The notes below the pieces were generated by a model. The model searched no databases, was not told the origin of the DNA, and worked only from the letters and a program-made list of their open reading frames with translations. The translations under genes and the position numbers were made by a program. A DNA stretch of 64,000 nt from Perkinsus chesapeaki (Eukaryota; Perkinsozoa; Perkinsida; Perkinsidae), in NCBI GenBank assembly GCA_013115145.1, contig JAAPAO010000092.1, positions 9,085 through 73,084 on the forward strand, written 5' to 3'. Shown piece after piece: positions 17,516 to 62,700 of this stretch (positions are counted from its first letter, which is position 1; each line of letters starts with the position of its first letter).

Positions 17516-18560
17516 TGACAGATAATAACGGCGACCAACACAGCAATTGGAGGAATACAGAAATCGCTTGGCATGGAGCATGGATGAGATCATCTCAATA
17601 TCTCTTGACTGTTGAGAGGCTCTATGACAGCTCCACGAGCAGTCCTCTACAACCACGAAGCCGACTAGTCTCAACACGGAAAGGTCCTCTACCTTCTTAA
17701 CGCTCCTCCTCAACCCACCACCGATATCCTCTACAGAGTCCTCCTGTCGAAGGCCCAAGGGTGTCGGTGCTACTCGACTGGGCTTCCTCTGAGCCATCTC
17801 TATTACTGTTGTGTCGCCCAATGCTAAGAGAACAATGAAGCTTCGCGAGCAATTCGGCAACTCACATTGGCCTCGAGTGAACATCTTAGTGATCTTCTTC
17901 AGCAACTTTGACCCTGACCTTCGGAACCGAGTCTCCTCCTCATCCGGACCGTCCTCAGCATAAAGAGTGTCTCCTTCACGCAACTGGTCTTCAACACGAA
18001 GCTGATCGGCTATCACTTGATGAGAGAGCTCATAGGAGTATATAACCAAATGCATCTGATAATAGGCGTGGGTTCAAATCCCAGCGGCGGCAGTTCTACT
18101 CCTTGCAATATGGCCTCGATCAAGCACACTACAACAAGGAGAACCAAACCTGATACCGGCAGCAGCCCTCTCGTGTCTGGACTGCCTGATCAAACGACAC
18201 TATTTAGGAAAGTGACCAGAGCCTACTAGCCACGGCCACAAGGATAACCAGAATCCAGCGAGTTTGCCCACACACCCGCAAGGCTCGACCGATCCTTTCC
18301 ACCTATCGGGTAGATCGAAGAGGGACGGCAGAAGGGAACTAACCTTCCCGAGGAGCTCACGCAATGTGTCAACGTCACCTCCCTCGAGACCTTCAAAACG
18401 TTCAAAGTCTCCTCCTTCCAACTGATCACGAACTGGTAATGGAGTTGAGTATCTGACACTAGTAGGATGCGCCGACTGGTCTTAACACAAAAATGGGACA
18501 GCCCAGCACACAATACTCAGCCAATTTCCCAAGGACAATCCCCATAGGTAACGCTTGCAA
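17320..18560. repeat. Right copy of the segmental duplication (partner 14310-14965)
   Basis: Contains the NAD(P)HX 5-prime fragment and the 3-prime part of the complete membrane-protein gene. It includes about 640 bp (17650-18290) absent from the left copy. Confidence 0.85.
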
Positions 18561-20013
18561 TGCGAGACTGATGCCTTGTGCGGTAGCATACTGGACCTGC
18601 AATGGGCCGACTCGTTTTAAGTGGAGAACCCCAGTGGACGTTACCGCCATAGTGGGCTGAGGCGGCTCTTTGAAGAGAGCAAGGTAAACCCGGCTGTAGT
18701 ACTCCGATCTGCTCGCTATCTGGAATCCTCGACCATCTACAGTTCTTGTCCATTTACCGATGCAGATCTGATACATATCTTAGGTTAAAGCATGTCAGAT
18801 ACGAAATATGTAATCGGACAACCCTCAGCACCGATCCAAAGCATAGCCATCCTTGTATCCTATACTTTATCCTCCACCAATATCCTTGTAGCAGCGCGCC
18901 AAAGTCTCTCACACCTGCCAGCGTGCTGCCCATATCGACGAGCTGTCTTCACCTCGCTGTTTGCTTTCCTCGTATTGGCGGAAATAAAGTGAACCCGCTT
19001 CGCTTCGCTCGTCATCAACTTCCTTCTGTTCCAAAGTGCCCAGGCCATCCATCTTCATTATTTTCTCCAGCTGCTCATCGAGTCCTGATGGTGCTGTATC
19101 TTTGCGCACTATAAAGATTCGTCTAGCCCTCGACCCACCGGCTGTAAAGTGCTGACCGGATAGATTGGCAAGCACGGCGGTGAGCAAAACAGCGACAAGA
19201 GAGGACCAAACCAAGCTGCGGCCGAACAACCAAGCAAAAAATGGAGCATGTGATGCGATCGGAGGGCCCTTCTGTCGCTCGAGCTGAATCAAATCTTTCT
19301 GACACCTCTAGCTCTCTCGTGAAAACGTTACTTCCAGGCATCCAGAGCTCTGATGATACAGTTGCTCATTGGAGTCGAACAGGAACTTAAGCGCTGCCAC
19401 CGACGCTAAGCACAGGACCTGGCATGCTGCAGTGAGAGCCTGACACAAGCACATGCCGTACGTCTTCTAGCTCATACGCTCACCCCCTTAGCCATGGACA
19501 GACTGCCCCATGTGAACCATTTGCGGTGTACTAACGATGCATATCGAGCACACTCAACTAGCGCCAAGACATCGAGGGCGGTGATCGCCTGAGTCGGCAT
19601 CAATGAGGCTGCTATCATGCCGCGCTACCCAAAGCATTAGACCAGTAGTAGTGAAAGCTAGAGATGATATTATGAGTGCAGTGCCAGCACAGTTATAGGA
19701 GCTAGCTCGGAATAGAGACAGCAGCCACCCGCCGAGAGACTGTGGGGTGGTAGAGTAAAGAAAAGCAGGTATCTGATTAAGGGTTCATAAACATTCATCA
19801 TCGCAGCCCCAAAGATGCGAAAATAATGACAGATGATGTACACCGCAGAGCGTTGAACATCGCCTATGATTGGTCGAGGGAAAGGCATGTGCAGATAGTT
19901 ACACTGTACTGGTAAGGCTGTTGCTGCTGCTTGCAACATACCCACAGAGCAGCGATTGTTAGACGGTCGAGGTACTCAATCTGATAGTTGAGTAGATGCT
20001 CTAAGTTTGACAT
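17465..20013 (-). CDS. Multi-exon, multi-pass membrane protein of unknown function
   Basis: ATG at 20013 (MSNLEHLLNYQIEYLDRL). Exons followed by frame: 20013-19950, about 19865-19755, 19600-19480, 19436-19365, about 19285-18915, 18859-18815, 18765-18535, 18470-18340, then 3-prime exons to about 17690 or 17465. Hydrophobic segments occur near 19850-19760 (ICHYFRIFGAAMM), 19580-19500, 19430-19390 and 19240-19180 (SLVAVLLTAVLANL). The C-terminal half is charged (YAEDGPDEEETRFRR, SKLLKKITKMFTR). Introns include a class B core (18056-18099) and a class A core (18860-18914). Its 3-prime part is duplicated at 14560-14965. The 3-prime end is uncertain because the last frame runs into the duplicated NAD(P)HX promoter. 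Confidence 0.6.
18056..18099 (-). repeat. 44-nt intron with tRNA-like core (class B), antisense
   Basis: On the plus strand it reads GCGTGGGTTCAAATCCCAGC then GGCGGCA: T-arm-like stem and loop plus acceptor-like end. The host gene is on the minus strand, so the core is antisense. GT and AG borders fit, but the exon phase on the upstream side is not fully resolved. Confidence 0.6.
18860..18914 (-). repeat. 55-nt intron with diverged class A core
   Basis: Donor GTGTGA after ARWQ, acceptor TATAG. Contains GACTTTGGCGCGCTGC, a weaker match to the class A core. Confidence 0.5.
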
Positions 20014-20137
20014 CTCGCATAGACCACAACTGTCATCGGGTCTCAACGAGATCCACTAAAAAGAGCGGTTGAGACCCTTGCTGATTGATACCCTCGTAAC
20101 GACAAAGCTAGCTAGAACAAGTGATAGTAGCTTTCAA

Positions 20138-59734: not shown

Positions 59735-59767
59735 TCTTCAAACCTTTCACGTCTTTCCTCTTAAACT

Positions 59768-62700
59768 ATGGCTGACGGTTGGCCCGCAAGCGCTGTGTTC
59801 CACTCCAGAGCCCCTGGATACGCCTTCGATGACATCATCCTTCTCCCCGGCCACATCAACTTTGGCGTCGAGACCGTCGATCTGTCAACTCGGATTTCTA
59901 AGGACATTATTGTAGGAATGTTAATTTCGTGGCGAGTGACTATTATGGCTGTATCTGATCAGCTGCGAACTCCTATTATTAGCAGTCCTATGGATACTGT
60001 TACCGAAGCCAAGATGGCCATCGCCATGGCACTTCTCGGGTATGATGGAATCCTCAGTGTATAATAGTTACTGTTATCATTTAGTGGTATGGGGGTGATA
60101 CATGGCAATATGACCACGGACGCGCAAGTCCAGGAGATCCTCAAGGTAGGTTAAAGCTTGCTTAAACCGGAGACAGATGAGAACATTGCCACTGTTTACA
60201 ATAATTCTAGCTTCGTGCTTGTTGTCGCTACGTTTGTTTCCTCCTCTAACTCTTCCTCTGCTCTCCTCGTGTGTCAGTCTTCAACTTTGTTGGTTATCAT
60301 TCATTGACGGCACTGGCGTCCTCTTTGGTCATATTGCCGTTCGCTTCCAAGTGGTGCGATGGTTCAGGTCAAACGTTATGAGAACGGTTTCATTATGGAC
60401 CCCTACGTCCTCGGCCCCAACAATACAGTTGCAGATGTGGATGAGATCCGAAGGGTGATAATTTCGTGGCGCGGTGACTATTATTATTATTATAATGTTC
60501 AGGTTGAAGGTTTCTCGTCTGTCCCTATCACACAGAACGGTCGCATGGGCGGCAAACTCCTCGGAATTGTGACAAGTCGAGACATTGATTTCATTGACGA
60601 TCGTTCGACCTTGTTGAAGGATGTAATGACGCAGGCTAAGGATCTGGTAAGGGGGAGGAGAGAGTGCCATAGCGGCCATGTGGAGGGTATCTCCTGAGGG
60701 TATAGTTACATAGCATTACTGAAATATTAAGTATCAGTGTTGTCGTTTGTATTATATAATACTACCTACGCAGTACCGAGCGAAAATGGAATAACTTTTA
60801 TTACGAGCAAATTTAGCTCAGCTAAAGGCTTGCGGAATTGCGCGGCATCATCATCATCATCATCTGATTGTTCGGTTAGGGTTGTCCTCCGCGTAGTTTG
60901 TGTTAATTAGGATCGTATGAACAAACAGTTCATCCCAGCCCTATGGGACTATGAGAAGTTCATCATCAGTATTCTTCATTCTCTAATGTATCTGTTATTA
61001 TGTTTGACATGTTTAATTGACTGCATTGGTTTACTAAGGCGTTATAGCATTGCTCTTTTGATAGGTAGTCGGCAGCGAACCTATATCCCTGAATGAGGCC
61101 AATGCGAAGCTTCAAGATGCAAAGGTTGGCAAGCTGCCGATTATCAATGACGACTGGGAGCTCGTGGCGCTGATTTCTCGAGAGGACCTCAAGAAGAACA
61201 AGTAATTATGTGGCGCGCGGTAATTAGTTATTTTGTTATTAGGGACTATCCTAACGCTTCTAAGGACAGGAATAAGCAGCTCATCGTTGGTGCTGCCGTG
61301 CCGGTAGGAATTTCATTCGTCCATTTTTGATGATTGGAAATCAGATTCTGCCCGCAATGGAGCTGTCGGCTCTCGAGGATAGGTGCCGCCTGCTGGTGGA
61401 GGCCGGGGTCGATTTGCTGGTCTTGGACTCCCCCGATGGTGATTCAAGTATGCAGGTTGAATTGATTAAACGTATTAAGGCCAAGTAGGCTGATGCACGG
61501 TGATGTAGTTTTTATACCATATTTCCGTCAACTCAGGCATGATAATGTTAATATTATGGCTGGTAATGTAGTATCAGTAAGGCAGGCCAAGAGCCTTATC
61601 GATGCCGGTAGGTGCTCCCATTCCTTCTGTCCTCAATGGCTCTTAAGGTGCCGATTCCCTCCGTGTCGGTATGGGCTCTTCCTCGGTCGGCATCGGTGCC
61701 AGCATCACAGCAGTTGGCCGTGCGCAGGCCAGCGCTGTTTACAAGGTTGGAAAGTTCGCTCGAGATTATGCAAATGTGAGCAGGCGGAGATCAAAAAGGG
61801 TTGCGGGGCTTCAACAAGCCCCTGGGCTATTGGTTTGGGATCTCGGTCGTAGGGAAAGGATTCGGCCACAAAATAAAGAATTGATCTTTGGACTTTGAGA
61901 CAAACACTGTATTATCATTCCTGTATATCCCTTCTTATAGTGCAGCGCTTCTTTGACCAGGCAGCAGGCGAGTGGCAGTGGATGAGTATGGCTGCCGACT
62001 GAGCTGCCGTGAGCGGCTCAGCTATGGGTCACTCAGTAAATGTATCACGTATTCTCTATATTATCTGAGTTGTAGATCTGAGAACTGTGCCAGGTTTGTG
62101 CTCGATAGAAGCTTCTTATTATTAAACCGCATTTATCATAGTAGTGTGGTATGGGTTATATTTCCCTCCTTCCTCCTTAGGTCCCAGTGGTAGCCGATGG
62201 TGGTATCCAGAACTCTGGTCATATAATGAAGGCACTTTGCTGTGGAGCTAGCGCAGCTATGATGGGGAGCGGACTTGCTGGAACTGATGAAGCACCAGGT
62301 GATCATTTGGCGGAGGAGCGGTATGGCCAGTGCTGTGGTCGGCAAGTTGCCAACGGTTACGGAGAAGCCCGGAAATATCTTGACCGAACTGAGATAGAGA
62401 TTGTAACTTTGGTTTCTGGAAAATGTTGAATTTTTGTGGAAAATCCTGGAAAAGTTATCTTTGGTCAACCCACATAGGCGGTTCGGCAAGGATGTTGTTG
62501 TTTAGGTGACTATTATTATTCGGATGGTGTTCGAGTGAAAACCTACAGAGGAATGCATTCTTTTAATGCCGTCAGAGAATGCTTCACAAATGCAGGAAAG
62601 GATACTAGCCGACTGGACAGGCCGTTTGCCGCTCAAGGTAGCGACTCAGGTTCGATTCCCAGGGCGGGCATGTAGTTATTTTAGGCGTTCAAGCTGCCGT

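What the first reader, a model, noticed from the sequence alone, without database searches (positions are those of the whole stretch)
18056..62684. Tiny spliceosomal introns built on a tRNA 3-prime-half-like core, in both orientations
Eight introns (18056-18099, 35089-35140, 36539-36582, 37189-37228, 40488-40531, 57161-57221, 57992-58085, 62638-62684) in six different genes each contain a B-box/T-arm (GGTTCGANTCC or a variant), usually followed by an acceptor-like end in GGCA. Four are sense and four antisense to the host gene. In the sense ones at 36539 and 37189 a five-T run (Pol III terminator-like) doubles as the pyrimidine tract before AG. Several are only 40-47 nt, so the core is most of the intron. 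In-phase splicing restores conserved motifs in the OMA1 and IMPDH homologues. This looks like an introner-like element derived from a tRNA or tRNA-SINE. I am not aware of tRNA-half introns being described.
Basis: partly seen in the sequence, partly recalled or inferred. Interest (0 to 1): 0.93.

Follow-up and report, generated by a model that had tools for sequence, protein, structure and literature searches.

The report
Tiny introns made from tRNA ends
In a single-celled shellfish parasite (Perkinsus), roughly two thousand short copies of the tail end of a tRNA-like gene are scattered through the genome, and many of them, in either direction, form most of a 40-58-letter intron, which points to an unrecognised source of new introns.

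Summary
The genome is Perkinsus chesapeaki or nearly identical. A ~34-bp core (AAGGTCNCRGGTTCGAWYCCCRG-N4-GGCA-T-run: tRNA variable loop, T-loop/B box, 3' acceptor strand, discriminator A, often a T-run) recurs genome-wide. An exact pattern gives 85 sites against 0 in its reversed control; a looser B-box pattern gives 3,063 against 640, tRNA genes included. In 353 kb of sample, 45 of 49 unascertained genic copies lie in predicted introns (22 sense, 23 antisense), 26 of the 45 in introns of 40-58 nt.

Two more have the core but unsupported boundaries. One (40488) lacks a significant core. In 16 of 20 proteins tested an F1 junction falls inside a Pfam domain alignment.

T-stem pairing is not kept, A boxes are rare, and no clear target-site duplication was found. 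The best reading is an introner family derived from a tRNA 3' part, inserting in both orientations. Its route (retroposition or DNA element) is open, and insertion polymorphism was not testable. At least five further repeated-intron families co-occur.

The parts
36539..36582 (+). F1 intron, sense core (44 nt), in gene 34242-38307
   Evidence: Exact in gene finder; removed in deposited P. chesapeaki protein P0121; no gap against P. olseni P0122; profile E 1.4e-10
37189..37228 (+). F1 intron, sense core (40 nt), same gene
   Evidence: profile E 4.6e-8 (this row is in the model)
35089..35140 (+). F1 intron, antisense core 35098-35131(-), degenerate, same gene
   Evidence: Intron exact; core weak: PSSM 12.5, E 0.088
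62638..62684 (+). F1 intron, sense core (47 nt), in the IMP dehydrogenase gene
   Evidence: (0 gaps over 480 aa against P. marinus)
18056..18099 (-). F1 intron of a minus-strand gene (17593-19495), core on the plus strand (antisense)
   Evidence: Exact in gene finder; PSSM 31.7; no homolog support for this gene (only a sub-threshold Pfam match)
57999..58032 (-).
   Evidence: PSSM 26.4
57148..57181 (-).
   Evidence: PSSM 14.6, E 0.026
26140..26173 (+).
   Evidence: PSSM 16.4, E 0.057
40488..40531 (+).
60455..60502 (+). F2 intron (AATTTCGTGGCGCGGTGAC core) in IMPDH
59912..59962 (+). F2-like intron in IMPDH (shortened core, read by eye)
61202..61242 (+). F2-like intron in IMPDH (TGGCGCGCGG variant)
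36928..36971 (+). F2 intron, sense
36814..36852 (+). F2 intron, antisense core
59768..63875 (+). IMP dehydrogenase gene as predicted (18 exons; protein compared up to residue 480, about 62825)
34242..38307 (+). Host gene of three F1 introns, matches FOL47_011063; 22 exons predicted

Best explanation
F1 is an introner family. The mobile unit is about 34 bp and derives from the 3' part of a tRNA-like Pol III unit: variable-loop AGGTC, T-loop/B box, 3' acceptor strand ending GGC, discriminator A, and T-run terminator. Copies were inserted across the Perkinsus genome in both orientations.

When a copy lands in an exon it can be removed as a GT-AG intron made mostly of itself. In sense, AGGT(C) after a flanking GT makes a GTAGGT-like donor, and the T-run before an AG makes the acceptor. 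In antisense, the T-run's complement makes a GTAAAA-like donor, and GACCTTT, the complement of AAAGGTC, makes the tract before an AG. The GT and AG come from the junction or the target, not from a fixed end of the element.

Shown here: repetition far above control, location in introns, both orientations, removal consistent with homologs. Inferred: mobility, tRNA ancestry, and the route. A reverse-transcribed, 5'-truncated Pol III transcript is my first choice.
For: Exact pattern: 85 sites, reversed control 0. Looser B-box pattern: 3,063 against 640, tRNA genes included. Unascertained unique copies: intron 45, exon 4, intergenic 17. Among 504 unique short introns, one similarity component of 63 holds 62 F1 members from many loci and both orientations. 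Introns of <=60 nt hold 27% of predicted intron bases but 26 of 45 unascertained intronic copies, so the copies are not simply strewn over existing introns. An F1 junction lies inside a Pfam domain alignment in 16 of 20 proteins. Agreement with deposited P. chesapeaki models FOL47_011063 and FOL47_004602 (100% over 293 aa, antisense F1 intron). In the 66 unascertained copies tRNA rules are kept where a plain palindrome would not need them: C48 95%, Y60 66 of 66, T preferred to A at 59, A73 73%. In the exact sites TTT follows GGCA in 46 of 84 and CCA in 2 of 84, as expected of an unprocessed transcript or its gene. The genome holds 56 RVT_1 matches at E<=0.001.
Against: T-stem pairs are not conserved: 39, 39 and 40 of 85 at the three outer pairs, no more than shuffles, and fewer paired cells than in any of 500 shuffles on 62 rows. 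A-box words are rare upstream (11 of 149). No clear target-site duplication (small excess of shared words). 38 of 84 exact sites have no TTT after GGCA. 14 of 45 unascertained intronic copies are in introns over 100 nt. None of the 22 distinct tRNA sequences in hand ends in GGCA; the set is partial. Insertion polymorphism untested. The gene finder is biased: a copy pasted into exons is called intron in 34 of 100. Other repeated-intron families in the same genome look unlike tRNA by eye.
Confidence: 0.68

Rival explanations
1. F1 is a hairpin-type non-autonomous DNA element (MITE-like introner), like other introner families; the likeness to a tRNA T-arm is incidental or was captured. A transposase acts on short palindromic DNA.
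For: A core such as CCGGG-TTCGAAT-CCCGG is nearly palindromic; both orientations are about equal; further intron families in this genome, with cores unlike tRNA by eye, also occur in both orientations. Most introner families elsewhere show TSDs and/or TIRs (PMC9860276, sections 7 and 8 read).
Against: No target-site duplication seen. Position 59 prefers T (0.68) to the A a palindrome needs; C48, R57, Y60 and A73 follow tRNA rules. T-stem halves are not complementary.
Confidence: 0.15
2. Pre-existing introns were invaded by tRNA-like fragments and some later shrank; F1 did not create the introns.
For: 14 of 45 unascertained intronic copies lie in introns over 100 nt; intron phases of F1 introns do not differ clearly from the others.
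Against: 26 of 45 lie in introns of 40-58 nt although introns of <=60 nt hold 27% of intron bases, and there the ~34-nt core is most of the intron; in short sense introns it starts 2-9 nt after the donor in 28 of 32.
Confidence: 0.1
3. The introns spread by reverse splicing of intron RNA (intron transposition).
For: No clear target-site duplications; removal without gaps against homologs.
Against: About half the intronic copies are antisense to the host gene (23 of 45), which reverse splicing into transcripts does not give; 17 of 66 copies lie outside predicted genes.
Confidence: 0.04
4. The B box is kept as a functional intron element (for example TFIIIC binding or a splicing signal) and arose repeatedly.
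For: In unascertained copies the B box mismatches its consensus at 3% of positions, the flanks at 24-31%, though the profile used to find them favours this.
Against: Similarity extends over about 34 nt with fixed spacing; short introns without an F1/F2 hit show no clear excess of B-box words (3 of 426 against a mean of 1.8 in shuffles).
Confidence: 0.03

Closest known systems
Introners of Gozashti et al. 2022 (PMC9860276; outline, abstract and sections 7, 8, 15 read, main text searched for words)
   Same: Many similar short introns in unrelated genes; similarity reaches both intron ends; opposite-orientation insertion allowed for in their search; family medians of 30-654 nt.
   Different: They report TSDs and/or TIRs in 59% of 130 families; the words tRNA, SINE and Perkinsus do not occur in the main text. 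F1 has a tRNA 3'-part core and no clear TSD.
Amoebophrya introner elements (PMC7789003, passages read)
   Same: A related alveolate lineage; repeated introns spreading in the genome.
   Different: Those are mostly non-canonical introns with inverted repeats and 3-5 nt direct repeats; the F1 introns found here are GT-AG (the gene finder allows no other) with a B-box core.
tRNA-derived SINEs (recalled)
   Same: B box, Pol III-type T-run, dispersed copies.
   Different: No A box in most copies, no body or tail region seen, no clear TSD, unit of about 34 bp.
Introns made by transposon insertion in Oryza and Zea (cited in PMC3443670, passages read; that the rice catalase case involves a SINE is recalled)
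   Same: A mobile element became an intron.
   Different: Isolated cases, not a genome-wide family of tiny introns.

Membership tests
Introner | Four or more similar introns in non-paralogous genes | tested here: met
   63-member component, 62 with F1; named hosts include a helicase, GTP cyclohydrolase I, an esterase, a WD40 protein and IMPDH. Paralogy was not filtered systematically
Introner | Similarity reaches close to both splice sites | tested here: met
   For short sense introns: core starts 2-9 nt after the 5' splice site in 28 of 32, and GGCA ends 1-19 nt before the 3' splice site in 32 of 32; antisense looser
Introner | Presence/absence between relatives or strains | not testable with these tools
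   16 joined sites hit only their own places; no sister genome on hand
Introner | Really spliced | tested here: met
   By homology and deposited gene models only; no RNA-seq
DNA-transposon introner (TSD/TIR type) | Target-site duplication | tested here: not met
   Repeat run across junctions 2.16 against 2.19 shuffled, 64 introns; mean longest shared word around cores 3.76 against 3.56, sd 0.07
tRNA gene | Full cloverleaf / T-stem pairing | tested here: not met
tRNA-derived SINE | A box and B box in one head | tested here: not met
   A-box word upstream in 11 of 149, downstream control 6 of 149
tRNA-derived SINE | B box kept by tRNA rules | tested here: met
   with a profile that favours it
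tRNA-derived SINE | T-run terminator directly after the tRNA part | tested here: inconclusive
   TTT after GGCA in 46 of 84 exact sites
tRNA-derived SINE | Pol III transcription and a LINE partner | not testable with these tools
   Reverse transcriptases present (56 RVT_1 matches); their kind and any transcription unknown
Amoebophrya-type introner | 3-5 nt direct repeats at intron boundaries | tested here: not met
Amoebophrya-type introner | Inverted repeats at the two intron ends | not tested
   No separate test made

The most novel reading that the evidence does not exclude
Spliceosomal introns in Perkinsus are being made from 3' fragments of unprocessed tRNA-like Pol III transcripts (T-run rather than CCA), inserted in both orientations by a reverse transcriptase. 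The Pol III terminator doubles as a pyrimidine tract in one orientation and as a GTAAAA donor in the other. With several unrelated families working the same way, a large share of this genome's tiny introns would be introners.
Probability: 0.4. Interest if true: 0.9.

Novelty: new variant of a known kind. Interest (0 to 1): 0.8.

Why it matters
How thousands of introns arise is a long-standing question. Introners are a leading answer, but their sources are mostly DNA elements or unknown. A family whose ancestry can be read from its sequence, and whose core gives usable splice signals in both directions, would show how an ordinary gene fragment becomes an intron. Proteins of P. chesapeaki, P. 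olseni and P. marinus are in public databases, so their genomes exist and presence/absence can be tested. The same genome carries further repeated-intron families, so it may be a model for intron gain.

Tried and rejected
Folded T-arm as the conserved unit: rejected. Many stem mismatches are CG, CA or TG at positions 50-51 (117 of 149) and 63-64 (123 of 149), as if CpG had decayed in a CCGGG/CCCGG stem; but CpG observed/expected in the sample is 0.86-0.92, so I leave this as a remark. Full tRNA or SINE: not supported. Target-site duplications: none clear. Linkage: present within each flank of the B box, little across it; not pursued. F1 and F2 as two halves of one element: only 5 F1-F2 pairs within 200 nt, 2 of them on the same strand. 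Empty sites in paralogs: none for the 16 tried. First gene-finder settings found no IMPDH intron and were corrected (12 of 12 at iterations 0-3, 11 of 12 later; iteration 3 was used). Intron phase of short F1 introns (26, 21, 18 for phases 0, 1, 2) is not clearly different from the others (213, 103, 126).

Rows dropped: loci L001, L031 and L114 as overlaps; other overlapping loci stayed in the 353 kb and were only deduplicated by sequence later. Two of 85 exact sites are absent from the 149 copies because of contig or locus ends or the score cut. 41 F1 hits on tRNA genes were removed; 73 unascertained hits became 66 unique ones with full flanks. 14 of 76 printed sequences were left out of alignment A1 without a rule. 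One weak hit (L053/L078, score 17.9) has no full B box inside its intron.
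Full report
ORGANISM. The window is part of a 35.39-Mb assembly in 884 contigs. A spliced IMP dehydrogenase from 59768 on is 93% identical to Perkinsus marinus. A second gene (34242-38307) matches P. chesapeaki FOL47_011063 with 852 of 853 aligned residues identical and 40 residues of gaps in two places. 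A gene on another contig matches P. chesapeaki FOL47_004602 at 100% over 293 aa, on a contig of the same length, 45,961 bases. FOL47_011063 is listed on an 81,113-base contig while ours (C877) has 74,139, so the assemblies may not be the same version. The organism is P. chesapeaki or nearly identical (Alveolata, Perkinsozoa).

OBSERVATION. The exact pattern GGTTCGANTCC-N7-GGCA occurs 85 times in the genome; its reversed control 0 times. A looser tRNA-type pattern, CNNNRGTTCRANYC, occurs 3,063 times against 640, 1,524 and 1,539 on the two strands; the excess of about 2,400 includes tRNA genes, whose number I do not know (62 matched, only 63 of 3,361 candidates scored). The 85 sites share a core: AAGGTCNCRGGTTCGAWTCCCRG, four variable places, GGCA, often a T-run (TTT next in 46 of 84, CCA in 2 of 84). 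In the window, 8 cores score 12 or more against 0.4 in shuffles.

GENE STRUCTURE. A self-trained gene finder recovered all 12 hand-made IMPDH introns (they had seeded its splice models) and predicted 763 introns in 353 kb, median 49 nt. The spliced IMPDH aligns to P. marinus over 480 aa without a gap. Scanning with the core profile (score >=14, tRNA genes removed) gives 149 unique copies, 83 from the pattern and 66 not. Of the 66, 45 are in introns (22 sense, 23 antisense), 4 in exons, 17 intergenic. Before removing duplicates, 47 of 51 genic hits were in introns where 45% of genic bases are intron, p=1e-12. The reversed control of the same scan gave 1 hit. Of the 45, 26 lie in introns of 40-58 nt, 5 in 61-100 nt, 14 over 100 nt; introns up to 60 nt hold 23,582 of 87,933 intron bases.

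CONTROLS OF THE GENE FINDER. With cores shuffled, 72-75 of 96 intron calls stay, so the calls rest mainly on the flanks. But pasting a copy into exon interiors gave an intron call in 34 of 100, exon 42, intergenic 24. The finder is therefore biased towards calling the core intron; the observed 96 intron to 10 exon is still well above that.

HOMOLOGY. I tested 20 spliced proteins from F1 hosts, chosen for likely domains out of 67. In 16 an F1 junction lies inside a Pfam domain alignment; it does not in L023, L048, L027 and L078. Three of the 16 rest on F1 introns longer than 60 nt (64 in L094, 71 in L003, 93 in L036). Clear cases: a DEAD-box helicase split within DYVH|RIGRTGR, GTP cyclohydrolase I, a histidine kinase ATPase domain, and an S-formylglutathione hydrolase with an antisense core (P. 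olseni without a gap at the junction). In gene 34242-38307 the three F1 introns are removed in the deposited model and show no gap against P. olseni. Deposited gene models are predictions; I did not see transcript data.

ANATOMY. Sense: GT, a few nt, AGGTC..., GGCA, T-run, AG. Antisense: GT, often AAAATGCC..., GACCTTT, AG. In short sense introns the core starts 2-9 nt after the intron begins in 28 of 32. Neither GT nor AG is a fixed part of the core. The T-stem is not kept. The B box is near-invariant and follows the tRNA rules R57 and Y60, which the search profile favours.

TESTS OF MECHANISM. Target-site duplications were not found across junctions; around cores there is a slight excess of shared words (3.76 against 3.56, sd 0.07) that may be composition. 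A-box words upstream are rare (11 of 149). Reverse transcriptases are present (56 RVT_1 matches). Equal orientation speaks against reverse splicing. Joined flanks of 16 introns found only their own places, so no empty site was seen.

OTHER FAMILIES. Three IMPDH introns share AATTTCGTGGCGCGGTGAC or variants (F2). ATTTYGTGGCGCNGTGAC occurs 128 times, control 0. F2 looks like a tRNA 5' part with an A box, a recalled likeness only. All-against-all comparison of 504 short introns gives 144 with a relative at E<=0.01, against 2, 7 and 5 in three shuffles; the sample is enriched for F1 and F2 because their sites chose many of the loci. Components at E<=1e-3 have 63 (F1), 22 (F2 and variants), 7, 7, 4, 4, 3, 3 and six of 2. 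Named by shared words: GCGGAGCGAAGC (7 introns; 133 exact genome copies of a 16-mer, control 0), TAGGTTGAAGC (7; 51, control 0), AGCTAGAGGTGTCAGA (4; 258, control 1), AATCGATT-GGGCGAGCGCT (4). In gene 34242-38307 nine of 21 predicted introns fall into F1, F2 or these groups.

KNOWN OR NEW. Searches of the held open-access library showed, among the rows listed, no paper on tRNA-derived introners or on introners in Perkinsus. Several listings were capped (20 of 1,057, 40 of 78, 15 of 670), and subscription papers and preprints are largely absent. I read passages of PMC7789003, PMC3443670 and PMC3488318 and three sections of PMC9860276. I file F1 as a new variant of introner. The tRNA ancestry is the best reading of the sequence rules, not proven; a hairpin-type DNA element remains possible.

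Noticed in passing
window 60455-60502, 59912-59962, 61202-61242, 36928-36971, 36814-36852: A second repeated-intron family (F2) with core AATTTCGTGGCGCRGTGAC; 128 exact genome copies of an 18-mer pattern, control 0; 20 sense and 5 antisense among intronic profile hits, partly pattern-chosen.
   Followed up: partly
window 36015 and 63561 (+); L005, L049, L072, L082, L090, L097, L099: Repeat GCGGAGCGAAGC in introns of both orientations; 133 exact genome copies of a 16-mer, control 0.
   Followed up: partly
window 36262-36310; 37912-37963; 19284-19331 (-); 35361-35403; 36671-36726: Members of five further small repeated-intron groups, several in both orientations; the first and third have 51 and 258 exact genome copies of a 16-mer.
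   Followed up: partly
window 23681-23747: A near-perfect 67-bp palindrome (below-threshold miRNA hits on both strands), not in a predicted intron; possibly a MITE-like element.
   Followed up: no
149 F1 copies: Outer T-stem dinucleotides are mostly CG, CA or TG (117 and 123 of 149), as if by CpG decay, although the sample is not CpG-poor.
   Followed up: partly
134 F1 copies: Sequence on the two sides of the B box is linked within each side but hardly across it, as if the halves were mixed.
   Followed up: no
window 40488-40560: OMA1/M48 homolog: a GAT triplet flanks the presumed insert and a different ancestral reading is possible; single case read by eye.
   Followed up: no
window 30319-30401 (-): ARAGORN calls a tRNA-Arg (tcg) here with the bacterial-code setting; no window sequence is shown by the standard-code run and Rfam gives no hit at its gathering score.
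   Followed up: no
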